A DNA stretch of 64,000 nt from Struthio camelus. Its lineage: Eukaryota > Chordata > Aves > Struthioniformes > Struthionidae. Made by a program: the position numbers and the translations under genes. Below the pieces are notes generated by a model. That model was not told the origin of the DNA. It ran no database searches and saw nothing but the letters and a program-made list of their open reading frames with translations. The stretch spans positions 113,088,238 to 113,152,237 of the forward strand of contig NC_090944.1 of assembly GCF_040807025.1 (NCBI RefSeq), read 5' to 3'. Shown in pieces: positions 3,713-58,038 of the stretch; position 1 is the first letter of the stretch, and each line of letters starts with the position of its first letter.

Positions 3713-5092
3713 GCCCTCCTCCAAGAGGGAGCCAGGAAACTACAGGCCTGTCAGCCTCACCTCCATCCCTGGAAAGGTGATGGAACAGCTCCTCCTGGAG
3801 GTCCTCACTAAGCACCTGGAGGACAAGAAGGTGATCAGGAGTAGTCAGCATGGATTCACCAAAGGGAAATCGTGCTTGACCAATCTGATAGCCTTCTATG
3901 ATGGAACGACTGGCTGGGTAGATGAGGGGAGAGCAGTGGATGTTGTCTACCTGGACTTCAGCAAGGCTTTTGACACTGTCTCCCATCACATCCTCCTAGG
4001 CAAGCTCAGGAAGTGTGGGTTAGACTGGACAGTGAGGTGGACTGAGAACTGGCTGGATGGCCGAGCTCAGAGGGTTGTGGTGAATGGCGCAGAGTCCAGT
4101 TGGAGGCCTGTGGCTAGTGGTGCCCCCCAGGGGTCAGTCCTGGGTCCAGTCTTGTTCAATGTATTCATCAATGACCTGGAGGAAGGGACAGAGTGCACCC
4201 TCAGCAAGTTTGCGGATGATACTAAACTGGGGGGAGAGGCTGACACACCAGAAGACTGTGCTGCCATTGAGAGGGACCTGGACAGGCTGGAGAGGTGGGC
4301 GGAGAGAAACCTCCTGAAGTTCCACAAAGGCAAGTGCAAGGTCCTGCACCTAGGCAGGAATAATCCCATGCACCAGGACAGGCTGGGGGTTGACCTGCTG
4401 GAAAGCAGCTCTGCAGAGAAGGACCTGGGCGTGCTGGTGGACAACAAGTTAAACATGAGCCAGCAATGTGCCCTTGTGGCCAGGAAGGCCAATGGTCTCC
4501 TGGGGTGCATTAGGCAGAGTGTTGCCAGCAGGTCGAGGGAGGTGATCCTGCCCCTCTCCTCAGCCCTGGTGAGGCCTCACCTGGAGTCCTGTGTCCAGTT
4601 CTGGGCTCCCCAGTACAAGAGAGACATGGCGCTACTGGAGAGAGTCCAGCGGAGGGCTACCAAGATGATTAGAGGGCTGGAGCACCTCTCCTCTGAAGAA
4701 AGACTGCAAGAGCTGGGCCTGTTCAGCCTGGAGAAGAGAAGATTGAGAGGGGATCTCATCAACGTGTACAAGTATCTGAAGGGGGAGTGTCAAGAGGATG
4801 AGGCCAGCCTCTTCTCCGTGGTGCCCAGCAACAGGACAAGAGGCAACGGGCACAAACTGAACCACAGGAAGTTCTGTCTGAACCTGAGGAAAAACTTCTT
4901 TCCTGTGAGGGTGACAGAGCATTGGAACAGGTTGCCCAGAGAGGTGGTGGAGTCTCCTTCCCTGGAGATATTCAAAACCCGTCTGGATGTGATCCTGGGC
5001 AATATGCTCTAGGTGACCCTGCTTGAGCAGGGAGGTTGGACTAGATGATCTCCAGAGCTCCCTTCCAACCTCAACCATTCTGTGATTCTGTG
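3713..5092 (+). mobile_element. CR1-type LINE, 5'-truncated, with intact 3' end
   Basis: This is a non-LTR retrotransposon fragment of about 1.4 kb. Its 3' end shows the usual CR1 layout: the end of ORF2 with stop TAG at 5010-5012, a short 3' UTR, then two tandem copies of ATTCTGTG (5077-5084 and 5085-5092). CR1 has this octamer tail instead of poly(A). The 5' end is truncated inside the reverse transcriptase region, as most CR1 copies are; the exact boundary near 3713 is uncertain by about 10-20 bases. Recognition rests on the RT motifs and the 3' tail. Confidence 0.95.
3732..5012 (+). pseudogene. CR1 ORF2 remnant: reverse transcriptase to C-terminus
   Basis: This is the C-terminal part of the CR1 ORF2 protein, the polymerase that copies LINE RNA into the genome. 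The frame is open from inside the RT domain (NYRPVSLTS just upstream of 3777) to the natural stop. Numbering from the GTG at 3777, the catalytic motif A is YLDFSKAFD with Asp about residue 60, the [10 protein letters not shown] motif lies at 115-124, and the FADD motif has its Asp pair at 147-148. The region after that matches the usual CR1 thumb and C-terminal part. The N-terminal endonuclease and the start of RT are missing, so it cannot act on its own. There is no frameshift or stop over more than 400 codons, which suggests a fairly recent insertion. Confidence 0.93.
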
Positions 5093-16829: not shown

Positions 16830-18839
16830 TCGCGCACACACACACACACATACTTGCAAACACATTGGAATATCTCAGTAAGTGAAATTTCAATAAAACA
16901 TTGAGTTTTCTAACTGAAATATTTTATTTTTATAAAATCAAGATGGTTCATTTACATTTCAACATTACATTTATGTAAACATAATATGAAAGTAAAACAT
17001 AATATGAAGTAAAAAAGGCTAGAAATGAAAAGTTTTTCTGAGATGAAAGGCCTTACATATGTTCCTAATCTTTTCCTCCCAATGGTATTTCATTGAAACC
17101 ATTATTTCTCTGCAGAGTACCTACATCTGAATGAAATGGCAATATTCCACTGGAAAATCTACATTCAGCTGTTTCAAGCTTTCTTCTACTGTTTATTTAA
17201 TTGTGAACCCATTTTGTTCATGTCATGACAATTATAGATAGCCTATCTGCCTGGCAGCTTAATTAGCAGATTTTTAATCTAGGACTTCAGCCTTTCTGGT
17301 TACTGGCAGCCTGTATTTTGTAACTCCTTCAGTCATTCTTTTCGTTCATATACACTATGGTTTTCATATAGTCTGTTTTCATTAAGCATAGACTCTTGCA
17401 GTCTTTATTTAATCAGATCTGCTTCATAGTAAGATGATTATGACTAAGGTGGAGGAGAAAATGAAAATAGGTTTGGTGTGGATCATGCCTTAAACGTGCA
17501 AAGTATCGTTTTATAATAAGGATCAGATAATTTAGAGACAATCATGAGATAAACTCCCCCAAAAGTACTTGCCAGTTTTGAGAAAAAGTAGTGCAGAGTT
17601 CTACTCAGAAAAGGCAAATATTTATAAATAACACACACGTGCATACAATAAAGGTATATAAACAACGGCATTGAGATAAGTTAAACAAGAGATTTGGTCT
17701 TAAGATGTAATTGTGTCATATTTACTGTACTTATTTCATATCATCTGGCTATACTTGTTTTCCCGGTAACCCGAGACCTTCATGACTTTTAATGTATTTA
17801 TTCTCCTATGGGCTTTATGCCATAATTTCCAGTAGCTTTCAATTTTAATCACTGAAGTGGCTTCACATCAATGCAGTGGGAGAAGTTTCTCCAGCAAAGG
17901 TACTTTGCTGAAAACTTTAGGGCTTACCGGATAAAATATATTGTGTATGTGTCAGTTAGTTGTTATTACTGAGGTAAACTAGCTATCAGTAAATTTGTTC
18001 ACAGATCAGGTGATAAAGTCTTCCCTTTGGCAGGAAACTACTGATAACCTGGAAATTATTCGTATGCTGGACCGATTTGTCAGAGTTGCTTAGTTACAGA
18101 ATGTTAAGGTTAGAAGCTAAAGCTACCACAAATGAGAATATGCCAGAATTACGGTAACTTAACGCACTACTGGATCTTGGTTCGTTCTCAGACACCGTCT
18201 GTGTTGTGCACCAAGTCAGCCAAGAGGTACTATGGAGGAAAAAACTCCACAATCCTGTGGTGGCACCGCACAAGGCATTATGTGCACAGCGGAGCACGTG
18301 AAGACTGCATCGGTAATTTTCATTGTGACATTTCCTATTTTTCAGCTGCTTTCCTTAGCCAAAGTAACATGTTTTCTGCAGCTTTACTGATGTATATAGG
18401 CTTTCCATGCATTCATATATATATGTGCATACAGAACCTCTGCACTCTTGTCTGCAGTTGCTGTGTATAAAGTTATGCAGATGTTTATGGCACATGTCTG
18501 ATTCATACAAAAAGCTAATAGTTTTCTTTTCTGTTTCCAATCTTTCCAAAAAAAGAAAAAAAAAAAAGGAAAGTGGTCAGTCAGACTTTCCATTTAGGAA
18601 TATCACCTTTTTCTTATAAAACTTGGAACACGTGCAAAACTTCCAGGATGATCAGCTGTTGATGGCAAGGGAACAACACTTCAAAATCTTGCCTGTCCTG
18701 AATGCGAAAAAAAAAAAGCCATCATCGGAGGGGAAGGGAATCAAGCTTTTCCTCCTAATTACCTTACTAACTTTTAAGGAAGGAGGGGATATGATGTTTA
18801 TATCCCTCGCCCCACAAAACTTCATGGAAAATCTCCAAC
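12726..18839. other. Intergenic region upstream of SYT14
   Basis: Mostly AT-rich with no convincing gene. It includes a GATA-type short tandem (about 13926-13940), a GC-richer, purine-rich pocket at about 13960-14170, and the alternating CA/CG tract described separately. Open frames here are short or low-complexity. Confidence 0.55.
16791..16850. repeat. (CA)n(CG)n(CA)n alternating tract
   Basis: About 60 bases of almost perfect purine-pyrimidine alternation: CA dinucleotides from 16791, a CG block at about 16814-16829, one break (CTCG at 16829-16832), then CG and CA again to 16850. Such tracts are length-variable microsatellites and known candidates for left-handed (Z) DNA. Confidence 0.95.
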
Positions 18840-18946
18840 CAACCCCGGCGGGTCGGCCCCCAATCTTTGTCCGACCGCCTCCACGGGGCGACCGGCGCCC
18901 AGACCTCGAGAGACGGCGCGGTGCCCAAGGCGAGCCGGGAGCCGCC

Positions 18947-18960
18947 GGGCGGGGCGGGGC
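18947..18960 (+). promoter_or_regulatory. Tandem GC boxes (Sp1/KLF-type)
   Basis: GGGCGGGGCGGGGC carries two overlapping GGGCGG-type boxes about 390 bases upstream of the SYT14 start codon, inside the CpG island. These are typical Sp1/KLF sites of TATA-less promoters. Their role here is inferred from position only. Confidence 0.6.
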
Positions 18961-19030
18961 CGCTGGGCCCCGGCCCCTGCGGGCGGGCAGGAGGCAGGCA
19001 GGGAGGGAGGCGGGAGCGCGCGTGAGGTGG

Positions 19031-19075
19031 CGAAGCCCTTCGGTTAAACGACCACCGAAGCCCTTCGGTTAAACG
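19031..19075 (+). repeat. Two-copy tandem repeat with 25-bp period
   Basis: The 20-mer CGAAGCCCTTCGGTTAAACG occurs identically at 19031-19050 and 19056-19075. Each copy contains the small palindrome CGAAG-CC-CTTCG and the AT-containing GGTTAAACG, which stands out in this GC-rich island. It lies just upstream of the CGG tract and could be a duplicated protein-binding site or a simple duplication. Confidence 0.95.
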
Positions 19076-19114
19076 GCCGCCGTTCGAATTCGGCGGCGCG
19101 CGCGCAGGGGAGCA

Positions 19115-19115
<1 letters not shown>

Positions 19116-19181
<66 letters not shown>
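19116..19181 (+). repeat. SYT14: (CGG)22 trinucleotide repeat in the SYT14 5' leader
   Basis: There are 22 uninterrupted CGG units, ending 171 bases before the SYT14 start codon. A complementary (GCC)6 run at 19225-19242 lies 43 bases downstream, so a strong RNA or DNA hairpin is possible. CGG tracts in 5' leaders are known elsewhere (FMR1 and others) to be unstable and to affect translation. Whether this tract is transcribed depends on the transcription start site, which is unknown. Confidence 0.95.
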
Positions 19182-19352
19182 GGAGGAGTCACGCGCCCTG
19201 GCACGCTCCGTCCCCCCGCCCCTCGCCGCCGCCGCCGCCGCCCCCACCTCCGCCGCCCGTCCCCGCGCGGCGCTGCTGTCTCGCAGCCTCGGCGCCCGGC
19301 AGCGCCTCTCCTGCGTGCGCTCCACTTGGTACGGCCCACCCCGGGGGGGATC

Positions 19353-19365
19353 ATGGCGATTGATG
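19353..19365 (+). CDS. SYT14: SYT14 exon 1, coding part (13 bases)
   Basis: Codes for Met-Ala-Ile-Asp plus the first base of a glycine codon. The ATG has A at -3 and G at +4, a strong initiation context. The donor GTAAGTAG at 19366 is consensus. The first G joins GT at the start of exon 2 to make GGT (Gly), giving MAIDGG, which fits the known SYT14 start. No ATG occurs between the CGG tract and this start codon. The exon lies in the CpG island and its 5' end is undefined. Confidence 0.93.
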
Positions 19366-22300
19366 GTAAGTAGGCCAATAACGGGCTCCTCTCGCCCCGA
19401 ATGACTCCCCTCCCCCAGCCCCCTCCTCTCCCCTCCCCCGGGCACGGGGAGGGGGCCGGCGGCGGAGGAGGGCTCCCGCCGGGCCTCGGGGTGGGGGCGC
19501 AGCGCAGGCGAGCGGCGTGGCCGGCCGGCCGTGCCCGGGGCCGGGCTGAGGGGGGTCTGCGGGGGTCGCCTCCTCCCCCTCATCCTCGGCAGCCCGCCGG
19601 GGGCTGCAGCGGGACTTGCTGCCTCCCCCGCGCCGGGCGGGCGCGGAGGGGTTGTTGCGCGAGCCGCGGGGAGGTGGTGGTGGTGTCCCCTCCTCTCGGG
19701 TACGTGTGTGTGTGAGTGTCTGTTTGCCTGGCAGGCTCGGAGGAGGTAAATAATCCCTGGCAGGGTGGCTGACATCCTTCCTTTTCCCTCCTCCTCCTCC
19801 TCCTCGCCGCCTGCCCCAGGGATGCCAGGCGTGTGCCTTTAGGTGCTGCAGAGGAGACGGCGGTTCGGTAGTGGCGAAACGCTTCCTTGCTGTGTTGTGA
19901 ACCGCCCTTGCTCTGGCTGGGAGGTGCAGGTGGATGGTCCGGGAGCCCGGTGCCTCCCTCAGCGGGCGCTGGGCAGCTGGGGCTGCAGCAAGGCGGCTTC
20001 CCCCGAGGCCCGGACTGGAGTTGGGGCTGTGCGAACAGGCAGGTGCTTCTGCCTGCTGGATGCGCTGGGGAGACCGACCCGGCACAATCTACCCTGAGAT
20101 GAGTTTCTAGGGACTGTTGTTGTTTTCCAGACCTTCTGAATGAGAGGATGCCTCAAAATCCGGAATGTGATTGTAAATGTTAGGTGCTGAAACGTGCATG
20201 GCGTTCTCCTTCCTCCTTAGAGAGACTTTGCCCGTTGTTTTAAAACTAATCGTCCCTGAGGTCTATGAAAACTAATTCCTTAGTCGAGGGACATTCCCTT
20301 CTCTCTCCTGAGAGCTAACAGGCTGTGTATAAGCTTGTGTCCTCAGTTCGTTCTGCTCATCGCTTTTTTTTTTCCTCTTTTAAAGGAGTAAGGTATAGTA
20401 GACACTTGTTGGGTTTATTTGGAGAGGATCATCTTAGAAGGCAGGGCTTCTAAGCTTTGTTTTGAAACCATCCTTCTAGACTCAGAAAGTGATTTTACAG
20501 GTTGTTTAAAAATTCCTTAAAAAAAACCCCCACCAAACTTAAATTTCTAGCAGAAGAAGGATTAAAGGTATGCTGCTTCCTCAAACTTAGTTTTTTCTTC
20601 CTGAAAGCATGTCTTTTTATAACCAAAAGAATCCAGGGAAACAGTGAAGAGATCAACTGTTCTTGTTTATTTTGCATGTGGGATGTTTTTGTGCTGTCAG
20701 TTTCCGTGGATTAGTAAATCAGGCCTCTGTAAGGAGAAGTGGCGCTTCGCAAGCGAAGTTGCATGTTCACCCTGTCTTGGAAGCTATGCATACCAGGAAT
20801 CTAAGTTGGACAGCTTTAAATTGGCCAGGTTCTTTTCTGCTGGAAAGCCATCTCAATATTATAAAGAAGGGAGCAAAACATTCTGCTGGGTCTGCACTTT
20901 TTATGTAACTCAAGCTCAGAAAGACAATTGTCAGTCCGTCATAATCTGTCAGTATTTTCAGGCTGCATTTTTCCAGAAATCCGTGAGAATTTGTAATAGA
21001 TCTGAAAATATTTATAAAGATTTAAAATTTGTGTCTAATATTTGTAGAGGATTCAGGCTATTACCTCTTAAAGACTAAAACAGGTACCCCTGGATGAATT
21101 AAGCAATCTAGCCTCTCAAAAGAATGAGACACTTCTCACTAGGGCCAGGGCAGACTTTCAGAATAGCCAGATTCTCCTGTAGGCACGTAATTAAATTGCC
21201 AAAATGGGAGTTCAGCTCTCCTGAGAGTGTGGTCCATAGATTAGAGTTAAAGGTGAGGCAGGATATGAAAATCCAATCACGAAACTGATCTGCTATGTTT
21301 TGATTTAGTTCTCTTCCTGAAGACAGGAGGTGAAATTAATTTTTCTGCTGTAATAGGAATGTAGCAACCTCTTTTTTTTTTTTTTTCTTCAAATGAGTAT
21401 CTGATTACTACAGATATGTTAATAGGTATTATAATCTCTATACCTCATCTTGGTGTTCTCCTCCTGTTCGTGTAATAGTATCTTCCTTGACTGTACTGTT
21501 TAGCAGTACTGCTTCCTGGTCAGCAATGTTTTAAAATGTGACTTTGATTTGAGTGACTACTGACTGCCTACTGTAAGGATCAAACTGCAGGACTTTAATC
21601 TACAAGTGTCAGAATACAGAATTTACACTGTGTCCAAGTAAATATTTGTATGATTTAATAACGTAATCGGAGAAAATACTTTGCTCTGTTTTAAAGACTG
21701 CAGTAGTAAAAGTTTTCAGGTTTTTTTTTTTTTTTTGGTAAAGCCATAGGAAATGAGCAAGATTGAAAACTTATAACTGAAGAATAAATATGAAGTAGTT
21801 CAAACTCCTTGTAGAAGAATATGTATATTATATTTGAAGAGTGCGCAAAATTAAAACAGCTCTCATTAAAATAGAATATGCTAGCTGCAAAGAATTAAGT
21901 GCTTTTGGCTGTTTGTTAAAAATTGTACGTACCATTTCCAGCGTCAGTATGTTAGCATACCAGTTTACATCAGTTTTAATGCTAACAACTGATTTTTTTT
22001 TTTTTTTAAGTGAAGTCTTTTGTATCGAGTTATAAAGAACCAAGAAAGTGAAGTTCATTTTGGTAAATGACAGTAGTTAGTTACTTCTGTATTATGGTTA
22101 CTGACAGACGTTTAAAAAATGAGTATTCTTCATGTGACCAAGTTCAAAGCCACAATTTTACTGATTGCAGCAATAGTTCTTTTTTTTTTCCCCCTAGAAA
22201 GTCAGTATCATATTAAAACTTAAAACAAAAAAAAATCTGGTATATAGTTTGCATAGTTCAGGCAGTCTCAAATTTCCTAGGAAACAGCTGAGGGCAACCC

Positions 22301-28300: not shown

Positions 28301-31300
28301 TTATGGAATAATTATGATCCTTTATTATGGACTGAAAGGGAATAATAAGCACTAGTGTGTTTCTACATTTCTTGAATTGGAAAGGACTTTGTTATCTAAT
28401 GTTTGTTTTAGCATGTTGTGAAGTGTTTGGAGTCCTGTATGATTAATGCATTTGGAGTAGACGTTTTGTAGACTCTTTGAACTAACTGTTTTAATATTTA
28501 CATCAGGTTGCAGAGAACATTATTTGATAACCTAGGCAGTTTTCTTCAGTTCTATGTGCATATGTTGCTAAAAAGAAGTCTTGCTGTCAGTGGAAGAAGG
28601 CTTGGTGGGCATTAGGGTATTTTGAAGATACAGGCCGTGCCTTGGAAGTGCTTGGAATTTTAAGGTTTGACCTTGGGGAATATCATTCTAAACTGTGTTA
28701 TTTTAAAAGAGAATGAAATCACTAATATTATAAATGTATACAATATGAAGTAATAATACAACCCAGCCCTTTCAACAATTCTTAGATACCATCACAAGAA
28801 TCTCTTCAACAGTTTGTAACTGCCTTTTCTTTTATACTATTTCTAAGACTTCTTAAGAAACCAGATACATTTTATCTGTTAATATTTTCTAATAATTTAT
28901 TTCCATATAGGTGGAGAACGAACTTGTGGTGTACATGAGCTAATCTGCATTAGAAAAGGTAAGCAATGGTTTATGAAAACTAACGTTTTAGCCTGGGAAG
29001 AGCGCGAGTGAGAAATCTGCTACCCCCTGTTAGTATCTTACATTTTCTAGATCATTATGTCAGACCTTTGTATTGCAGAATCTTTGGTGACATCATCAAA
29101 GAAAAGAAGAAAAAATCATGCAATAAACAGAAAATTTGAAATTCCAAAATAAAATTGAATTTTTCACAAGAGAAAATGTTTTTCCCAGTACTCACTGAAT
29201 TACATGGAAATGCTGAATGTTCTCCAGCTGTGGCTGGATTCTTGTAGGAGGATTTGATTTTCGGTAGTGATTGAGAGTTGTGGTGATACCTTAAATAGTT
29301 GATGTAATGGACTGGCAATCTCAGGCTATTTTTTCAGCTCAGATCCTAACGACACAAGCTGCTTTGAAAACAGCTATATCAGTAATGAAACCAGTAATTG
29401 GTAAGAGCATAAAACAGAACTGTACTCAAGAGAGGGCTTTTATATGTTTAAATTTGAGTTACAATGACTGAAGTTGCAGTTTGATGGTACAGCATTGCTG
29501 TTGAAGCTCTGTGCATTTGATCTGAAAACTAATCTTTCAAAAGAAGAATTATTTCCTCAGAGTCAATAATTTCCTTGAATTGACTCGCCCTTGGCTCAGA
29601 AGAGTCATAGGGCTTTTAAAAGAAAAGGAGTGAGAAAGTAGCAGGAGAGGAGGGCTGCAAGATTCTCTCTTTTGGCCGAAGCTGTTCGATTGGTTAATCA
29701 GCATTGTCACACTGTATCATGCTTGGTAGGAAGAAATTTTGTGTGGCCTTTGAATAGAGCTTAGTTTCCAAACTGTTTACCTGTACTGCATTCACTTACA
29801 ATTTTAGTAAATATAGTTTTTTTGGAAACACTTACTTATTATCTGCTGGCCTCAGAAATAAATCTATCAGTCAAGGTGAAAAATGGCTTTGCTGTCACAA
29901 GTTTTCTTTTACGAAACATTTTATTGAAAGAATAATTGAAGGAATTGTATGTCATTTGACAATATTAAATTAAAAAATTAAAATTAAAAAATTTTTTCCT
30001 CTCTTAAAAAAAAAAAAAACCTCTGAATAATTCCATTCTTGCTTTTTATAAATTCTTTCTCATTTAAGGAGTTTGCTTCTTCCTTTTTCTTTTCCCTCCA
30101 CCCCTCTTTATGGCTCTCTCTGTCATTCCACTGACCATCAGTGCACACAGTGTTCTGTATTCTTGCCTTAATCATGATAATCCCTGTTTATTTCGGGGCA
30201 CTGTACCAATTTTAAGAAAAACAATCTTTTTGTGTTCTTGGAGGCAATGCTTTTTGTTTGATTTTATTGTCATTGCTGGAAAATAAATTGAAAAGCGTGC
30301 ATCTTTTTAAGGTTCTGTGTTATGTTTGGACATTTGTGGCTTGTGTGATATTATTTGTAATAATGGTTGCATTGAACCTGTGTTGTAGTTTTGATTATTA
30401 TAAATTAACCTAGGGATAATCTTGGCAGTTATAAATTTGCCTAGAGTAGTAACTTACTACCATTTATATCTGTAGTATGTCGAGTTCTTTCTTTCCTGAT
30501 GTGAGTTCTTGTGTATTCTAACCAGGGGTGCCCGCATACCCCGTCATGCCACTGGCAAGTTTCTCCTTGGAGAGTGTGGAGAGGGTCTGTTCCTGTGTGT
30601 CCCCTCTCCCTACTTGCCTGCCGTTGTTTTTGTTGTCACTTGTCCTATTGAGAAGTTTCCAGTTTCAAGGGAGAGAGTGTAACTGGCGTGTATACATGGG
30701 TTATACAACTTGAAGAACACATGATCCTGGAGATTAGTTTTTTTATGATTAGTAAACTAACCCGTTCCCATTTGTCATCTTCTTGCCTGCCCACTCATTT
30801 GTGTTGGAGGAAGTAAAAACCTTGGGGTCTCAGATGATGACACGTGAAAAGGGACCAGAAAGGTCTGCAAGGCTGTGTGTGACCACACCATATAGCTCAA
30901 AGTTATTTAAAGAAATCTTCTGCAGTAGCATAATATATATGAAGAACGGAGGAAGAGACAGCTACTCTATATTAATTAAATGTTAACATTTTTCTTTCCT
31001 CTAGCTGCATATATGAAGGCATAATTGTAAAAACAAAAAATGATGCTTATGAAGGAAGTGTTCGTTCCAAGAACATTCGGTTACTAAAATGAGAATCTCT
31101 GAAACTTCACTTTTCAACTTTTTTCTTTCTTGAAGTTTTGCGTTTCACTCAAATTAGGAAAAATCGTGAAGTTTTTTTTTCTTGTAAATGTTCATTATTT
31201 TCACTTTTTAGGTACTCAGGGCTGCAGTATTGGGGCTGTAAACAGTGCAGAAGAGTTTTCATTTATTTAAAAGCATCGATTTCACTGATGTTAACAATAC

Positions 31301-40300: not shown

Positions 40301-43300
40301 GTGTCATTTTTTATAAATACAACGTGTGTGGTATTTGGTAAATTCCCTGAGAAACGATGTGATTATAGCTTCCTTATTTTCCAGGTGCAAACCCCAAAAG
40401 CTCTACTAATTTTGAATACGTAAATACCTGATTTGGGAAGGCTAGGATCTTGTTATTCGGAACTGTTAATGTATGTTCAGACATACTATTAGTTGAAGAA
40501 TACTTGATTTTTGGATGTAGTTATAAATAGTCAGTAAGAATAGTGGCCAAAATCTGACATCAAAACTAAAGCATGTGGCTAGTGGACAGTTAGGAAAAAT
40601 GGGATCTTAGTAGTTTAGACTTAATACTATAAGAAAGTTGTAGAGGGAACAACATAACTCATTTTTCTAGAACTCTGAACTGCTTTTATCTGTTTAAAAA
40701 AAAAAACCCAACTTGTTCTTCCTCCTTTTTTCTCTCTCTACTTATTATGCACTTTCCAACTCTACAATGAGAGGTTGGGATTTTATAGCCAATGGCATCA
40801 TTCATTATTTCCATTGTAGGTCCATCCTCTCTTGCATGAGGCAAAGATGGTATGGAAGAATTTGTGAGTTGTGTAATTAAAGATAATCAGTGGTGGGAAT
40901 ACAAAATGATACAAACTTTTTCATTCATGGTGCTGTTTCTTTCAGTCTCTAGCTCCTTGTGGCCCAGTTTCTGTATCTGTCCAGTCTTAATCTCTGTCGT
41001 CATTTTCTAACTTTGTTTCACATCCTGATTTTTCCTGTGCACTCCATCCCAGTGTTGCACCTTGCTCATTACGTATCTGTTTCCTCGCTGGAACTCATTA
41101 ACTTATTTCTAATCTCCATGTTTCGCTTTACTCTCACTTCTGTTGGTCCTTGTATCCTGGTGAACCAGTCCTTTCTTCTGCCCTTGCTGCTGCCTCTGCG
41201 TTTGGTAGATGTTAGAACTGGGAAGTTATTGAAGAATGAAGTCTTTCTGCTCTTACCTTGGTCTCATTTGGGTCAGGCTAAGTACTGAAAAGCAAATTGG
41301 GCGTTGTTCCGATAGCCCTAAATTGCATTGTTGTAATTTATTCATATGCAGTCTTGGAAGGGGAAGGAGCATGCGTACTGCCAGCAGAACCTTAGGAGAT
41401 TTTTTCTCTTTTAAACTTTGAGATCAGTAATGAATATACACAAACAGGCTTTTTTTCATAACTCACAGATTTCCTGTATTTAGGAAGATTTCATGAAAAT
41501 GCTAAATGGATGCCTCACTGAAAAACTTCCTCCATATAATGCTGTTTTTCTTTTTTTCTCACCTCATTCTTATTCACACTTGACTATTTTGTAGTTAACA
41601 AAAAACCGCTTCAGCATGAGGTTGAGAGTTGACATAAGATTCAGCTGTAACAAATGATTTCAGTAACATTATAAGCGACTCTAGGTAGACTTGAAAGGGA
41701 ATCTTAAGTAATCTTAGTGGGATGTTCAACATCTTTCATGGTAAACATATTTCTCTTTCTATTTGCTCATGATAATGAGAAGATGAAAAAATTTACCATC
41801 TCTTCCTCTATGGTTGGTGATAGAATTCCACTTTTTTCGCCTTGTTTCTCTGCTTGGCATAGCAGGATCCAGAATCCTGTAGGACTAATCTAGGGAGCTC
41901 TGTAAGTGTATGGGTCTTGGTGTTTCAGTAATGCTGTCTGAAATTTGAAAAAGACACACCTCCTAACTACTCTGGCTGCTTTTATAACTTAGTCAGCATT
42001 TCTTCCATTTCTGGACCTTCTTTCTTGCCACCCTTCTGTATCCCTTTGTCTGTCCAGTCTGTTTTCAAGTAAACAACGTGCCTCCATTTACTTTTTCCCT
42101 ATTGGTCTCATTTGCTACATTCATTCCCAAATTTTCTATTTCTGAAAGCATTTCCTAGATAACCTTGGTCTTATATAGCATTAATGATATGGTGACCTAG
42201 GTACTGGTGACCTTGCAAGATTCTACCTGGCCAAAAGATGCCTAAAACTCCCCTTCAGTTATCTGGTTGATAGCAATTACATGCTGTTTATTCTGCACGC
42301 TTTCAAAGACCTGTCAGTCTGCTTCAGCCTTGGTTCGTCTACCTGGTTTAAATTAAGCATGCTTTATTCCACTTGGCTCTTTCTTGTTTTATACACAAGC
42401 TATCCACTTACCAGGATAAGGATCATATTGCTAGATGCTTTTTCTCACTCATTTGTGTTTTTGTTTTTGTTTTCTCCTCACACAGCATCCTACTTGTCAG
42501 GGAGCAGGAAGAACTAGCCTGTCCTCAGCTGCTCTATTTCTAAGTTGGCCCTGAGCCCAGGGAGCCAAACCTCCTGAAAGGGGGATGCTATCAGGGCCCC
42601 TACATTCTCTCCCTTAGATTTTTCATCAGAAATTGTCAGCCTTGACGCGTTCTGACAATCTCCTGGTTTCCTGCAGAGACCCTGTCTTTTTATGGCATCC
42701 AGTACTCCAGCAGGACCTTTTGCTCACAACATTAGTCTTCCTTAGTTTTAGACCAGGTATTTTATTTTCTTTGAAAAGATGGTTGTAGGAGGAGAAGCTG
42801 ATGAAATTTAACAATATTAAACATTTATTCAAAAGCAAATGATAGTTTTTCGGCTATATCTTACATATATATTTGGAACTTCAGTAGTATTTATTAATGA
42901 CCAGTTCTGATAAAATATTGTAACTTTGTACAAGATGAATTTTTTTTACCTGTTTCTTTCTGTTTCTTTCAGTGTCTCCTGAAGCAATTGGATTCCTGTC
43001 TGCTGTTGGTGTGTTCATTATCCTCATGTTGCTCCTTTTTCTATATATTAATAAGAAGATGTGTTTTGAAAATGTTGGTGGTTTCCCAGATCTTGATTCA
43101 GGATACACTACAAGAAAGAATTCACAAGATAAACTTTGTAAGTGTCTGAAATAGTTTACTAAACTTAAAGTTATAACACTTGTCATGCATTTTTTACAAG
43201 GAAACACAGAAATACACAAATAATCACATGACTCAAGTGATGAAAAGAGGTACATTATTGACTTTTCCTGTGATTGTGCGCTATGCTGAAGGGAAGAAAC

Positions 43301-46300
43301 CTTTAGAGCCACAAGCCACAGAAATTCAACAGCTATATAACCAAAGAGTTGGCATTTACTTATGTACTTCTCTTGCAATAGGAGGATCCTCTAGAATGTG
43401 TTTTAAACGTTCCATAATTGTCTATAAGGAAATTTTCTCAAGTAAACTGTATTGACCTTATGGAGGTGTTGCATTTACTCACCTGGAAAATAGTTTTAAA
43501 GAATTCAAACAATGGAAATTAAATAGATCTCTTCTCCGGCTAATGAGTTATTTCTAGACTTTTTATTTTCAAAAGAACAAGGTCTTTAAGGGTAATATAT
43601 TGAACTAAGGAGAATTAGACCTTACGAAAGGAAGAGCTTGAGGGCTGGTAAAATAAATTCTTCTGTGTGTTTGGGCTGCAAGGACTGAATGGGCTTTGTT
43701 GGCTCACATGAGAGGAAGAGACAGGCACCAGAGAACGGGATAGGAAATCTTAGCGGTGTTCTTCCCTTCTGCCTCTTTAAAAGGCGAAGCTAAATTTTTA
43801 ATTTTTTTTGTGATAGAAGAACTTTTTTTTCCTGGAAATTAAGTTTTTCTTTTTTTGTTACAGAGCAGGTCTTCCTATTCTAAAATATCTTCTATTATGT
43901 AAAAGACAACAAATATTTAGGGGTTAAGAAGTCTCCCTGATGTGTGCTGTTGTGCAGCTATTATATTAAAAGTTATTTTAGTGTGAATTTAATAAAAAGA
44001 CTAAATTGTCTTAAAACTTCTTCTTTGCAGGTTAGAATAAAAATGCATATTTACTTCTTGCACAGTTGTATTATTTTTGAAAATAATCAATTTTATTATG
44101 GTTAGTTGATGCTGCAATTGATGGAAGACTGTCACTTTGCTACTTGATTTTTGGCTTCATTTGAAGATACTTATGTTGCTCTCATTATTATTGTCAATGC
44201 ATATTGAATGGAAAGAACAAAGCTGCAACTTCACCTGCTAAATATGTTAAGTTTGAGGTAACAAAAGCAAATAGCTGTGAAATTGAACTTGGAGAAATGG
44301 AGATGATCTGTTTGTGAAACAGAAGACCTTTCTATAGAAAAGTTGTTGTTGATCAATACATTGGACAAATGGCGTTTTTCAGGAACTTGCACCAAAATCT
44401 GAGCCTTCCATCTGTGTCTTCTCTGGTTGATACGCTTAGCAATGCTGTAGATGATCTGACCAATGCTGTTGGAGAAGTCAGCTACACTGTAGCTGATTCA
44501 GTAACAGAACAAGTAACAAGCATGATAAATGGCCTTCGCGCAGAGGATGAAAGCTCCAAAGTACAGAATGGTAAACCTATGGATGGTAGAGAGGAAACAC
44601 TATTATTAACTCATTCCAAGGAAATTAATATGAAGGAAGAAAGTAGTACTGCAGAACATAAAGAGACTCATTATCCTAATTCATTAGATCTTGTAAAAAA
44701 AGATCTAAATCAAGCCCATGTCATATGCAAAAACCAGTGCCCATTAAAAGGCAGAGATGGTAACAATCATTTTAATGATGCAGAAGTGCCTCAGGATTTG
44801 AAAAATGTAGGAAGAACTGTTAAAAGGGAAGCAGTAGGAGGAAATCAGTATTTAGTAAATAAGTTCTCAAAGGATAGTAACCTGAAAAGTAATAAATTTA
44901 CAGTGGATGGTTCTATCAAGGGACAAAATAATTGCCTACATGCAATATCAGGTAATTCTAAGAATCACTTGCAAGGAAAAATCAAACCACAATCATCTGG
45001 AATTGATTTTAAGGATTCCGAAGAAGTGCATAGGATGAATGTTTCCCAAGATTTAGAAACAAAAGTGAATGAAGTACAAAAGCAAAAATTATCAGATTCC
45101 AGCTTGAAAAAGACAGACGACGATCCTTCCTTAACAGAAAGGAAATCTGAAGCAAAAGAAAGGAACTCTGAAGCTTTTTTTGACAGAAAAGGAAAACCTA
45201 TAACAAAGGAGGAAGATAATACATCAGCTACACTTACAAAAGCAGGTAAAAAGAAAAATCCTAAGAAAGCAGAGAAAAGTTCAAGAGAGCTAAGTAATAA
45301 GAGGACAACAGAAAAAGGTGAGGAGTCCTTGAGCAAGCTTCGTTCTTCAACCTTTTCTGAAACTTATGGCACTTTCTACTTATTTCACCTAATTTTCAAA
45401 TTTCACTTCAGTAATACCATTTTCTGTGGATGGAAGTAATTTTGTTTTCTAGGTACTTCATTCTCTAATTATGATGTTATTTCTTTGAAGTTAATTACTT
45501 TAAAAAAAATTTAGTTAATGGAACTGATTACTAGATGTCTTTCGTATATTCTAACTTTCTTCCATATAACATTTTTCTCACCTTTTCTGAAGTGCTTTGT
45601 GTGATTTCTGTTGAAAACTGGGAATTAATTAATACTAGGAATTAATGCTTGTTGTTTGAAAATGGCTTTCTTTTTGTGTGCTTTAAAACTGTTTCAAAGG
45701 TTGTACGAATCTTACGATCTTTCAAGTTTGCATGAAGTGTGATGAGATAAAGAAAAAAGTGCACTTCTGTTACATTTGCATTATAGTAGATCTTCAGAAT
45801 GTATTTCTGGGATACGTAACATAATAATTTTAAGATAGAGAAGTCACTGACAAGTGGCAATTAAGTAATTTTAAGTATAAAGAGAACTGAACAAGACTTT
45901 TTTTTTAAAGTTGTAGTCTTACAGAGAAAACCTATGTATTGTTGGTGTGGATGCTGTGTGCGCTGCCTTCAACATCCAGTCTTTTAACAATATAACAATG
46001 GAGTTTGCAATGATAGTTTGTGAGAAAGAAGTAAAACCTGGTATTTTTACATGGTTATTTTGCAGGATATGCAGTGACTTTTTAGAAAGTAACACATACT
46101 TTCCTTGGAGTTGCTATTTCTGTAGAGAAATGAATAACCTGATAATAGAACAACAAATTTTTCCCTGTGTGTGAGTTATTTCCTCATATGGGGCAACATT
46201 TGGAGAGTATATTCTCTATCAAAATGTCATTGTAGATACTATAATAAGCAAATCAATAGGTTTTAATAGGTTAATAATGATATATGAACTCCTTTTTGGC

Positions 46301-49300: not shown

Positions 49301-49874
49301 ATTGAATTTACTTTAGATAAATTATGAGCATTTTCATCTTAAATGAAAGGTTTCAAGAAGTTCAGTGTGTCCTACTTTGCCAAAAATGATCCATTTTCTG
49401 TTGTGGTTTTTTTTTTTCTGTTAAGGAAGTTTTATGTTTTTAGGTCTTAATTGTCTTTCAGTATTTGTAGAAGAGAAAAATACCTGTTGCCTATTACAAA
49501 ACCGTATAATACTTATAACTGCAAGATAACATTTTTGAAATGTTACAGAAGTTTTACTTGAAATAGGTTATCATCAAAGATATTTAAGCTCTTACGGTTA
49601 CTTTCTTGCATTCTTTTTTGAGCTGTAGTCGATTTACTTTATTTTGTTCAAACAGACAACTCTTATATGAGTAAAGACCAGCATGGCTCATCATCTGAGA
49701 GTGAAGATGAAGCACTGGGTAAATATCATGAGGCCTTGTCTAGAACCCAGAGTTCCAGGCTGCCAGTGGTGGATGGCAGACAGCAAAAAAACTATGTATG
49801 GGAGACCAGGCAAAAATATAGTCCTCTGTCTGCAGAATATGATGGATATAGTAGTGAAGCTTCCATAGATGAAG
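19353..49874 (+). CDS. SYT14: Synaptotagmin-14, N-terminal part of spliced gene
   Basis: Hand-assembled from four exons: join(19353-19365, 28911-28958, 42973-43137, 49656-49874). The spliced frame gives 148 residues starting MAIDGGERTCGVHELICIRK. A single membrane helix follows at about residues 26-46, then a cytosolic linker with an acidic serine cluster (SSSESEDE). The match to the synaptotagmin-14 N-terminus is recognised by memory and is close along its length. SYT14 is a family member with two C2 domains that are thought not to bind calcium, acting in membrane traffic; human SYT14 has been linked to a recessive spinocerebellar ataxia. The human protein is about 555 residues, so roughly three quarters, including both C2 domains, must lie beyond this window. 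All junctions are GT-AG and phase 1. SYT16 is the close paralogue, but the exon 1-2 peptide points to SYT14. Confidence 0.95.
19366..28910 (+). other. SYT14: SYT14 intron 1 (about 9.5 kb)
   Basis: Bounded by GTAAGT at 19366 and ATAG at 28907-28910. The first 600 bases continue the CpG island. The rest is AT-rich with several T runs (near 21370, 21720, 21990 and 25420). The longest open frames (for example 20644-21078) show no recognisable domain. No further exon or young repeat is recognised. Confidence 0.85.
28911..28958 (+). CDS. SYT14: SYT14 exon 2 (48 bases)
   Basis: Acceptor TTCCATATAG at 28901-28910; donor GTAAGC at 28959. Read in phase 1, it codes for the short segment GGERTCGVHELICIRK, which precedes the membrane helix, and ends with the first base of a valine codon. 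At 48 bases (16 codons, phase 1 at both ends) it can be skipped without changing the frame. By topology the peptide would face the lumen or the outside. Its two cysteines (residues 10 and 17) are possible disulphide or acylation sites, which is inference. Confidence 0.95.
38594..38965 (-). mobile_element. Old CR1 3' fragment (minus strand)
   Basis: The plus strand reads TCATAGGATCATAGAATAAT, the antisense of the octamer tail. It continues with CTCCTGCTCAAAGCAGAGTC, ACAACCTGCTCCAGTAATTA, a segment near TTGCTTCTTGTTCCCCTGCC, and CACAGGACAAGTGCTCCAGG. These are the antisense landmarks of the CR1 3' UTR and ORF2 end, in the right order. Divergence and indels are heavy, with no open frame, so this is an ancient copy in intron 2, opposite in direction to the gene. 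Confidence 0.88.
39701..39720. repeat. Poly(T) run of 20
   Basis: Twenty consecutive T residues in intron 2, followed by AAATC. No SINE body is recognised beside it; probably a simple homopolymer expansion. Confidence 0.9.
42973..43137 (+). CDS. SYT14: SYT14 exon 3, membrane helix exon (165 bases)
   Basis: Acceptor TTTCTTTCAG at 42963-42972; donor T|GTAAGT at 43138. The 55 codons begin VSPEAIGFLSAVGVF. The strongly hydrophobic stretch at about residues 26-46 of the protein (IGFLSAVGVFIILMLLLFLYI) is the single membrane anchor. It is followed by the basic stop-transfer NKK and FENVGGFPDL, and the exon ends in NSQDKL plus one base. That T joins AC of exon 4 to make a tyrosine codon. There is no cleavable signal peptide, so the anchor sets the topology, with the C-terminal side in the cytosol as in other synaptotagmins. 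Confidence 0.97.
44297..44317 (+). promoter_or_regulatory. Six-codon upstream ORF before the alternative ATG
   Basis: ATG at 44297 reads Met-Glu-Met-Ile-Cys-Leu-stop, with the TGA at 44315, in the same frame as the main ATG 52 bases further on. If the transcript starts upstream of it, this small frame could lower initiation at the main ATG or allow re-initiation. Transcript evidence is needed to know whether it is included. Confidence 0.5.
44369..45317 (+). CDS. SYT14: Probable alternative first coding exon of SYT14
   Basis: An open frame of 356 codons (44369-45439) is far longer than expected in this AT-rich intron. It contains a consensus donor, AAAAAG|GTGAGG, at 45318. Splicing there leaves 316 codons plus one base (G), which joins AC of exon 4 to make aspartate and continues into NSYMSKDQ in frame. 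The start MAFFRNLHQN has A at -3 and G at +4. Residues 13-53 (SVSSLVDTLSNAVDDL and onward) look like an amphipathic helix; the rest is polar, rich in Lys, Glu, Ser and Asn, with a basic tail (KKKNPKKAEK). There is no membrane segment. An in-frame TGA at 44315-44317 closes the frame upstream, and no AG between there and the ATG gives phase 1, so a first exon fits better than a cassette. The isoform would lack the membrane anchor but keep exon 4 and the C2 domains. If not spliced, the frame ends at TAA 45437-45439. Confidence 0.85.
49656..49874 (+). CDS. SYT14: SYT14 exon 4 (219 bases), cytosolic linker
   Basis: Acceptor TTCAAACAG at 49647-49655; donor G|GTAAGA at 49875. Codes for 73 residues beginning NSYMSKDQHGSSSESEDEAL and ending SSEASIDEG, where the last glycine codon is split after its first base. 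This is the linker between the membrane helix and the C2A domain. Its acidic serine clusters are plausible casein-kinase-2-type sites, and the YSPLSAEYDGY stretch has possible tyrosine phosphorylation sites; both are inference. It accepts two different upstream exons (exon 3 or the exon at 44369), both in phase 1. Confidence 0.97.
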
Positions 49875-55400: not shown

Positions 55401-56533
55401 TTGGCCCAAGTGCCTTACATTTCACAAGGTTTTTTGGAAACATATGGAAGCACTAAAAGACTGCAGTGAGAAAACATAAGTTCTGTTAAATGAGAATCTG
55501 CTGCTCTAGCAGGCATATGCTACTGGATTTTATCCATCTTTTCCATATTGTGAAGGTAGAGTATGATGTTATTTTTGTAGTTTATCTTCTCCACTTTTAT
55601 TCTCCTTTAGGCTTTCAGCGCTTTATGTTGATATGTCTGTTGGGCATATGTTTGCCTTGCTCCTCAGTGTCAATCTTTGCACGTGAAGGCGACTGTTCTT
55701 CTGGAATCTCTTGGATCTGATTCTTTATGCAGCTTTTTGCATTTTCTTTCTTGTTAGTTTTCATCTCTTAGATAAAGTGTCTTCACTGGATGATATATAG
55801 AGATTTTCTTTCAGTATATTCCCAGCATAAACAAGAAGAGCTCTTTCATAAGAAGCTCATACTTCTGAATCTCCCAATTTGTTAAAGCACTTGGAAGGGA
55901 GTTAGAATATGGTTGTATCACGTTCAGCAAACCAAGGCCATAAAGTTCTTTCAAAGTTGATTTATCTATCTGTATATTTCAGATACTAAGAATTGCAGGC
56001 AAAGAGTATTGTGTAAGTAGTGGAATAAGAGCTATAAATTAGTTTTCAGATTGGAAGAGTGAATGCTCAATTGAATACTATATCATGTGGTGATGATATA
56101 GTTATTTCTCTTCTTTTTCCACTAATGTGCTTTAAAGAAAGAAATTTGAAATATAATGGAAATACTATCTAGTAAGAAAGCGGCCACACATTTTTCTCTG
56201 TCTTTATTAGATTACCTGTGAGGTTACTCTGGTACAGTATTTGTTGAAAGAAAACATTCTATGTGGCCTGAGGCTTGGGTAGAGAATAGTGCTTTTAGTA
56301 GTATGTTCATCCAAATAATTCTGAAAGGGCCTTAAGTAAAGACACTTAAGAGAACTCCTAAGTAATCTTTAGAGCAGTTATTTCCCAAATGTTTCAAAGT
56401 GTATTTTAAAGGATGAGTCAAGTTACAGCTATGAGATACTCCAGGCATTCATACTTGTGTACACCACCATCAGCTGATACTGTTATCGATATGTTTTTTA
56501 GAGGTTTTTTTGGAGAGAGAAGGGTATACTGTA

Positions 56534-56534
56534 A

Positions 56535-56597
<63 letters not shown>

Positions 56598-56630
56598 CAC
56601 ATATATGCATACATACATATATATATATAT
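56534..56630. repeat. Composite (AT)n(GTAT)n(CA)n...(CATA)n(AT)n microsatellite
   Basis: About 97 bases: AT repeats, then GTATGTATG, a CA run at about 56565-56595, a short spacer, CATACATAC and AT repeats again. The left arm 56543-56565 and right arm 56608-56630 are perfect 23-base inverted repeats, so a cruciform or hairpin with a CA loop is possible. Confidence 0.95.
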
Positions 56631-58038
56631 GAATGATCCATCAGATTTGATCTTTTATCCATGTGACTATTTATACCAGCTTCCATATGCTTCTGTTTTC
56701 ATTATGTGGACAACCATCCTTGAAATTACATGTTTTAAGAGTAATTTAAAAATGATTATGTAGTGTGGGAGAATGGACGGCAACACAATGCTAATGAGGC
56801 AAAATTTCTGATTCTTGACTATGTGCGTATGTCTCTTATTAGTAAATTGAAGGGAGTAAATTGGGTGGGTAAATTGGCTCCAATTGACTCCTTAAAAATT
56901 GGAGAAAGAAAAGTTTTTGTGGTTTTGAAGCCCCTGTAGGTGTGGCAGTTCAATCCATATCCATATCAAGGGAATGTCGTAGGGATAGTTTTGTGTCTAC
57001 TGTGGTACAAAAAAGATAACTTTGTAATTCAAAGATCTGTAGGTTACTGTCCACAGCAAACTTAATTTGCCTTGTTTTCTTCTTCCTTACTATGATGTGC
57101 TTTTTTTTTTTTTGACTTTCAGGATGGCTTTCTAGTGTGTTATTTTGTGTTAGTGAAAGATAATCCTCTGTTATTCTGCTCTTACAATAATAGGAAAAGA
57201 TAGTAATTTCTGTTAAGTATTTGAAATTGTGGAGCTTGTCTCTGAAAAATACAATTGACTGAGCATTGCAGAGTGATTTAGAGATTAACTTTTGGTCTGT
57301 CTGATGTTCTTCAGTTTTACAGAATACTGATCTGTTTTATTTCCCAAGAAAGTGTTACTCTTTCTCTTTTGAAAAGTTCCTGGTATTAAAGGAATATTAT
57401 TTGAGTATTAAGGTACAGTCATGCTGTGGTTATGGGTCTTTACCCATGTGAATGGCAGACAAGCATGTTATTTACAAATAGTCTGGAGATCTGGAATGCA
57501 TAGGATTCACAGGTAAGAATAGAAAGCAAATGTAATCCAATATTATTCTTGTAATGTTCTTGGGGAATATTACAGAAGAGGGAATAAGTAGACATGGGAG
57601 TTTAAAGACAAAGGTGGTTCATGGCAGACTTTAGATCTGATCTGAAGAGAATGGAGTTATATGGAGAACTTTTGAGTTGAACAGCTAGATAGATGATATG
57701 AAGTAGTGCATAGCAAGTCTTTTGTTGACCAAAGGTAACGTATGAAAGTGCTTAACAGAGTGAAGTTGAATAATTTGGAAACCATGGATTTACCCAGCAA
57801 TTAACAGTGGTGATGCTGGAAGATGATGTTAAAGCATGCATATCATCTATGGATGACAGGAAAAGACTAGTAACAAAACTCAGTCAGTGATGATGATGAT
57901 GATTTTCAACAAGAAAGTTCCCTTTCCAGCTAGGTCAGCTCCAAAGGAGGATGAAGTCCACCCTCCAGTGGGAAAGAATTTTTCCTGATGTGTGCAAGTG
58001 AGCAGAGCAAACTCGTAAATCAGGGTGCCCCTGCCGTT

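What the first reader, a model, noticed from the sequence alone, without database searches (positions are those of the whole stretch)
44369..45439. Alternative SYT14 N-terminus that swaps the membrane anchor for a 316-residue soluble segment
A 356-codon open frame sits in intron 3, with a strong start context, a consensus donor at 45318 and exact phase-1 joining to exon 4. The predicted isoform lacks the exon 3 membrane helix and instead begins with a helix-like stretch (SVSSLVDTLSNAVDDLTNAV) followed by a charged, basic segment. This would convert an anchored synaptotagmin-like protein into a soluble or peripherally bound one from a second promoter.
Basis: partly seen in the sequence, partly recalled or inferred. 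Interest (0 to 1): 0.75.

Follow-up and report, generated by a model that had tools for sequence, protein, structure and literature searches.

The report
Membrane-anchor-free SYT14 isoform exon, already annotated
The open reading frame is a real alternative starting exon of the ostrich SYT14 gene that replaces the membrane anchor with an amphipathic helix and a long flexible stretch; databases already list this isoform in birds and mammals, but what it does is untested.

Summary
The frame 44369-45439 is open for 356 codons. Stop to stop it spans 373 codons, against a maximum of 259 in 1000 simulated introns. Codons 1-316 join exon 4 in phase 1. The 316 residues are identical to NCBI 'synaptotagmin-14 isoform X2 [Struthio camelus]', so the window is ostrich SYT14 and the isoform is already annotated. 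Equivalent models are listed in many birds, in human (isoform X3) and in other mammals. A 2010 survey reported human SYT14 transcripts lacking the membrane segment (passages). Added here is the anatomy. Residues 1-57 are conserved (ostrich-human 76%, ostrich-shark 60%) and form an amphipathic helix with periodicity near 98 degrees per residue. The following ~260 residues evolve fast and are predicted disordered. Past the donor the frame is shifted in some birds, which argues for an SYT14 exon, not a nested gene. Best explanation: a peripheral, helix-docked SYT14 variant. The gene structure is near certain; the mechanism is inferred.

The parts
44369..45317 (+). coding part of the alternative N-terminal exon of SYT14 (316 codons + 1 nt, phase 1)
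   Evidence: 316/316 identical to ostrich SYT14 isoform X2
44369..44539 (+). conserved head, residues 1-57: MAFFRNLHQNL then an amphipathic helix from about residue 16 to 57-62
   Evidence: hydrophobic moment peak at 97-98 degrees, AlphaFold2 helices of low to moderate confidence; identity to ostrich 96% emu, 76% human, 60% shark, 58% unnamed P0041
44540..45317 (+). fast-evolving, lysine-rich, predicted disordered linker, residues 58-316
45318..45323 (+). splice donor GTGAGG
   Evidence: junction seen as KD|N in 104 of 110 models with head pattern and exon 4
45318..45439 (+). read-through tail of the ORF past the donor, judged intronic
   Evidence: tail shifted in frame in 3 of 19 bird-like ORFs (a fourth weakly), dissimilar outside birds, ends at varying distances
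49656..49874 (+). SYT14 exon 4, shared by both isoforms; 219 nt
42973..43137 (+). SYT14 exon 3 with the canonical transmembrane segment (165 nt), replaced in the alternative isoform
28911..28958 (+). SYT14 exon 2 (GGERTCGVHELICIRK), canonical N-terminus; found with a recalled motif, boundaries read by eye from AG and GT sites
44449..44450 (+). possible cryptic acceptor inside the alternative exon; a join from exon 3 would be in frame, as in the turtle model P0024
   Evidence: gene model only

Best explanation
The feature is the alternative first coding exon of SYT14, at least as old as amniotes and probably as old as jawed vertebrates. A transcript that starts in intron 3, or enters it from an untranslated upstream exon, begins translation at 44369, is spliced from 45317 to exon 4 at 49656, and yields a protein of about 796 residues with both C2 domains and no membrane-spanning segment. 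The conserved 57-residue head is an amphipathic helix with a Val/Leu/Ile face and an acidic Ser/Thr polar face. I propose that it docks peripherally on a membrane or a partner protein. The ~260-residue flexible linker then tethers the calcium-independent C2 domains to that site, so the isoform can be recruited and released where the anchored form cannot. Shown by sequence or annotation: gene structure, conservation, helix periodicity, absence of a transmembrane segment. Inferred: membrane or partner docking, reversibility, separate promoter.
For: 316/316 identity to ostrich SYT14 isoform X2. Of the 215 proteins held, 119 carry exon 4, 110 of these matched the head pattern, and 104 of the 110 share the KD|N junction. 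The head is conserved while the linker is not: human 42/55 against 46/220, shark 34/57 against 27/167. Hydrophobic moment is best at 97-98 degrees per residue in 10 of 10 sequences tested, with 0 of 5000 shuffles reaching the observed value in each. Pro14-to-EQV spacing is 33 in 196 of the 201 proteins where both marks were found; the others are +4 (2 frogs), +7 (2 marsupials) and one chimeric turtle model; +4 and +7 are about one and two turns and keep the face. AlphaFold2 gives helices 2-10 and 16-62 (full length) or 16-37 and 41-57 (exon alone), with the linker disordered. The tail after the donor is shifted in frame in 3 of 19 bird-like ORFs, one more weakly.
Against: No RNA read, CAGE tag or peptide could be examined; NCBI models are predictions whose read support I could not see. 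The helix is net acidic (-4 or -5), unusual for binding anionic membranes (recalled), so a protein partner or coiled coil is possible. AlphaFold2 confidence is low (head blocks 51-71; means 37.2 and 49.1). Start context is not strong. In 16 of the 19 bird-like ORFs the middle of the tail still matches the ostrich frame, so the frame shifts alone are modest evidence. The shark and frog records are stand-alone uncharacterized proteins that I could not place in an SYT14 locus; a starling record (P0012) is stand-alone too, and a crane record (P0002) is a 344-residue model that ends in the tail. P0021 (unnamed source) has an end that does not match the linker, and P0011 lacks the donor motif.
Confidence: 0.6

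Rival explanations
1. The head helix is a coiled-coil or partner-docking segment, not a membrane binder: it oligomerises SYT14 or attaches it to a presynaptic or cytoskeletal protein.
For: Net charge -4 or -5 with an acidic polar stripe; beta-branched valine face; indels of 4 and 7 also suit hendecad or heptad coils.
Against: The moment peaks near 98 rather than about 103 degrees (the heptad value is recalled); no Pfam family was matched by more than one of 19 members.
Confidence: 0.35
2. A separate single-exon gene nested in SYT14 intron 3, ending at 45439, as stand-alone NCBI models in starling, frogs, a shark and a crane could imply.
For: P0012, P0039, P0040 and P0042 are named uncharacterized proteins and P0002 ends in the tail. 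In 16 of the 19 bird-like ORFs the middle of the tail is still in the ostrich frame.
Against: The tail is shifted in frame in 3 of 19 bird-like ORFs; it is 4 or 9 residues in the mammal-like ORFs that end at the donor motif, 7-10 in shark, frogs and P0027, and dissimilar there; 104 of 110 models with head pattern and exon 4 share one junction.
Confidence: 0.04
3. The exon is an internal coding exon that can follow exon 3, giving an anchored SYT14 with a much longer linker.
For: Models P0024 (turtle), P0199 and P0209 (rodents) join exon 3 to the exon or its interior; in ostrich a join from 43137 to 44451 keeps frame by my reading.
Against: Only 3 of 215 proteins held show it (the searches favoured proteins with the head, so anchored forms without it are not in the count); no AG in the 200 nt upstream of the ostrich ATG has a strong pyrimidine tract; such models are prone to prediction error.
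Confidence: 0.06

Closest known systems
SYT14 isoform X2 of Struthio camelus (P0061) and equivalents in other birds
   Same: Same species; 316/316 residues, same residues across the junction to exon 4
   Different: Nothing in the N-terminus; some bird models skip exon 4 or carry a 19-residue C2B insert
Human SYT14 isoform X3 (P0163) and mammalian isoforms
   Same: Same head, linker layout and KD|N junction
   Different: Linker only 46/220 identical; human exon is 49 residues longer
TM-less splice forms of other synaptotagmins (SYT5, 6, 8, 9, 10, 12, 13, 15, 16) and of human SYT14, as listed by PMC2823689 (passages seen)
   Same: Alternative N-termini that remove the membrane segment
   Different: Whether any shares this head was not tested; no named row or 27 was a SYT16
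11-residue-repeat amphipathic helices of perilipins (PMC5889406, abstract and section list seen) and alpha-synuclein (recalled)
   Same: Amphipathic helix with periodicity near 11/3 (the perilipin and synuclein values are recalled)
   Different: No Pfam perilipin or synuclein match; here a single helix, not a repeat array, and acidic

Membership tests
SYT14 (alternative isoform) | exon lies in an SYT14 intron and joins SYT14 exon 4 in frame | tested here: met
   annotated ostrich isoform
SYT14 (alternative isoform) | tandem C2 domains downstream | tested here: met
   P0061 is listed with PF00168; that there are two copies is recalled, and these exons were not found in the window
SYT14 (alternative isoform) | transcript shown by RNA | not testable with these tools
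   no expression data available
canonical transmembrane synaptotagmin | N-terminal membrane-spanning helix | tested here: not met
   max Kyte-Doolittle mean 0.55 against 2.91 in exon 3
11/3 amphipathic lipid-binding helices (works-like comparison) | helical periodicity near 98 degrees | tested here: met
   10 of 10 sequences
11/3 amphipathic lipid-binding helices (works-like comparison) | binds lipid | not testable with these tools
   needs liposome or cell assay
any Pfam family | match of the exon product above the curated cut-off | tested here: not met
   window ORF 0 families at E<=1; 19 relatives give 11 families, each matched by one member, best E 0.002 (cut-offs are not shown for these)

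The most novel reading that the evidence does not exclude
SYT14 carries, since early jawed vertebrates, a dedicated second targeting module: an uncharacterised 57-residue amphipathic helix that replaces the membrane anchor and addresses the same calcium-independent C2 tandem reversibly to a curved or neutral-lipid membrane or to a partner, giving SYT14 two cellular addresses and perhaps explaining why its function has stayed unknown.
Probability: 0.4. Interest if true: 0.5.

Novelty: already known. Interest (0 to 1): 0.28.

Why it matters
SYT14 is linked in print to human ataxia and neurodevelopmental cases, and its precise function is described as unknown (PMC13069148 passages; PMC8709054 passages). 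The one variant paper that I looked into numbers its SYT14 variant on NM_153262, which I recall to be the anchored isoform. A conserved TM-less isoform means that localisation work done with the anchored form could miss part of the gene's output, and that variants in the alternative exon would not be covered. The conserved head gives a short, directly testable peptide.

Tried and rejected
Nested-gene reading: set aside on the tail comparison and the shared junction. Chance ORF: rejected. Known domain in the exon: Pfam gave nothing consistent, and no PDB chain matched at E<=1. No RNA family reached its gathering score in the window. Fold search was not run: the models are helix plus disorder with low confidence, so matches would mean little. 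dN/dS was not computed, as I had no bird DNA besides the window. Paper searches showed no study of this head among the rows listed: 20 of 64, 4 of 4, 0 of 0, 20 of 26, 10 of 1018 and 10 of 14; subscription papers are mostly not held. In one search I used 49657 as the first base of exon 4 and got a shifted frame; one search corrects it to 49656.

Full report
What is there. The frame 44369-45439 is open for 356 codons on the plus strand, and the stop-to-stop run of 373 codons is the longest in SYT14 intron 3 on either strand; 1000 first-order Markov simulations of the intron gave a median of 102 and a maximum of 259. A donor AGAAAAAG|GTGAGG lies at 45317/45318 and the exon 4 acceptor at 49655/49656; the join reads ...SNKRTTEKDNSYMSKDQHG.

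Whose gene. The 316 residues are identical, 316 of 316, to a protein named synaptotagmin-14 isoform X2 of Struthio camelus, 796 aa. The window is therefore ostrich SYT14, and the isoform is already in NCBI. Canonical exon 2 lies at about 28911-28958, the transmembrane exon 3 at 42973-43137, and exon 4 at 49656-49874. A tblastn of P0020 and P0024 at E<=1e-3 found only exon 3, the alternative exon and exon 4, so the later exons probably lie beyond the window.

How widespread. A first search gave 41 relatives, named as birds, a turtle, squamates, frogs and a shark or without a name. Profile searches gave 415 and 506, of which only the best 120 each were listed; these include many bird SYT14 models, human isoform X3, rat, bats, whales and marsupials. 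I held 215 proteins in all, the window ORF P0001 included; 205 of 215 contain a start like MAFFR or MAFFK. Of the 215, 119 carry exon 4; 110 of them matched a pattern for the head, and 104 of the 110 join as KD|N. The six others are emu P0081 (KV|N), quail P0020 (a later donor), P0165 and P0188 (ED|N), P0179 and P0210. The nine that missed the pattern all contain the head: seven near the start and two, P0199 and P0202, further in. A further 49 lack the exon 4 motif but carry the next exon; 44 of these join the exon directly to it (KANCIQRM), which exon 4's 219 nt allow, and in five (P0167, P0194-P0197) the end of exon 4 is still there, so they are not true skips. The remaining 47 had neither mark; most are unspliced single-exon ORFs.

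Exon, not nested gene. The unspliced ORFs that show the donor motif run 4 to 41 residues past it (P0190 and P0193 matched the pattern elsewhere and are left out). The mammal-like ones stop after 4 or 9 residues, shark and frogs after 7 or 8, the squamate-like ones after 10 to 30, and these tails do not resemble the bird tail. I took 19 bird-like ORFs with a tail (P0011 and P0021 left out for want of the motif). The middle of the tail matches a shifted ostrich frame in three (P0002, P0007, P0023) and the end does so weakly in a fourth (P0008); in the other 16 of 19 the middle scores best in the ostrich frame. Upstream, the same 19 align over 92-100% of the 317-residue query. There is a bias: these ORFs were found by similarity to the upstream part, and the species of most are not named. 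The end of P0021 does not match the linker, which may be a frame break or a sequence error.

Anatomy of the isoform. Compared with ostrich, residues 1-57 are kept at 55/57 (emu), 52/57 (crane), 48/57 (monitor lizard), 42/55 (human), 35/55 (rat), 39/55 (Rana) and 34/57 (shark); residues 58-290 at 178/226, 153/230, 58/212, 46/220, 35/216, 26/162 and 27/167 (15 sequences aligned). The head is thus much better kept than the linker, though less than the C2 part (rat 369/406). In 188 heads of equal length, the hydrophobic positions L19, L23, V27, L30, V34, V37, V41, V45, V49, M52 and L56 fall on one face and D21, D28, D29, E36, D43, E47 and N54 on the other. The hydrophobic moment peaks at 97-98 degrees in 10 of 10 sequences, with 0 of 5000 shuffles reaching the observed value in each. 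Length changes between Pro14 and EQV are +4 in two frogs and +7 in two marsupials, against 33 in 196 of 201 (the remaining one is the chimeric turtle model P0024). AlphaFold2 predicts helix 16-62 in the full-length job (mean pLDDT 37.2, head blocks 51-71) and 16-37 plus 41-57 in the exon-only job (mean 49.1, head blocks 57-67), with the linker disordered; the C2 domains were also poorly modelled in the first job, so low scores partly reflect a shallow alignment. The linker is lysine-rich, net +9 over residues 61-316 in ostrich and human but -8 in shark, so basic charge is not a constant feature.

Mechanism. There is no membrane-spanning segment in the alternative exon. SYT14 is described as calcium-independent with unknown precise function and is reported in hair cells and Purkinje cells (PMC13069148 passages). 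I infer that the helix is a peripheral docking module and that the flexible linker tethers the C2 pair. Membrane docking and partner docking are not separated by my data; the acidic polar face favours a partner or a neutral, packing-defect-rich surface over an anionic membrane. Length, hydrophobicity and charge of the perilipin 4 amphipathic helix matter for its targeting to lipid droplets (PMC5889406 abstract); this is a works-like comparison only.

Promoter. The 1.2 kb upstream is 33% GC with CpG o/e 0.21, and nine ATGs lie in the last 300 nt. No AG in the 200 nt upstream of the ATG has a strong pyrimidine tract (best 0.56, against 0.94 and 0.67 at exons 3 and 4). This fits a start within intron 3 but does not show one. 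Six proteins, two grouse species with two models each and two unspliced unnamed ORFs, extend upstream with a run starting MKQKI that could be a translated pyrimidine tract, which may mean a splice acceptor there in some birds. This is open.

Known or new. Already known at the level of annotation. [quoted passage not shown] I did not see its supplement and cannot say that it is this exon. The helix analysis was not seen in the rows listed.

Noticed in passing
window 3780-5012: 410-codon reverse-transcriptase-like ORF ([21 protein letters not shown]), by recalled motif a CR1-type LINE; not searched.
   Followed up: no
window 18600-20150: Many overlapping open frames on both strands with proline and arginine runs, like a CpG-island promoter, possibly of SYT14; composition not measured.
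   Followed up: no
window 44449-44450: In-frame cryptic acceptor inside the alternative exon; turtle model P0024 joins exon 3 there, and two rodent models also join exon 3 to this exon, giving anchored forms with a long linker.
   Followed up: partly
window 42973-43137 and 49656-49874: Exons 3 (165 nt) and 4 (219 nt) are both phase 1-1 and divisible by three, so each can be skipped in frame; 44 of the 215 proteins held join past exon 4.
   Followed up: partly
proteins P0089, P0048, P0050: 19-residue insert GLFCCLKHLIGGQVYIIRD, by position in the second C2 domain; its start is present in 30 of the 215 proteins held.
   Followed up: no
proteins P0015, P0018, P0090, P0091, P0127, P0129: N-terminus starts MKQKI; in the four grouse models 21-22 residues precede the conserved MAFF start and look like a translated polypyrimidine tract.
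   Followed up: no
window 56413-56763: ORF whose product has long HTHT and YIYI runs, as from dinucleotide repeats, a microsatellite.
   Followed up: no
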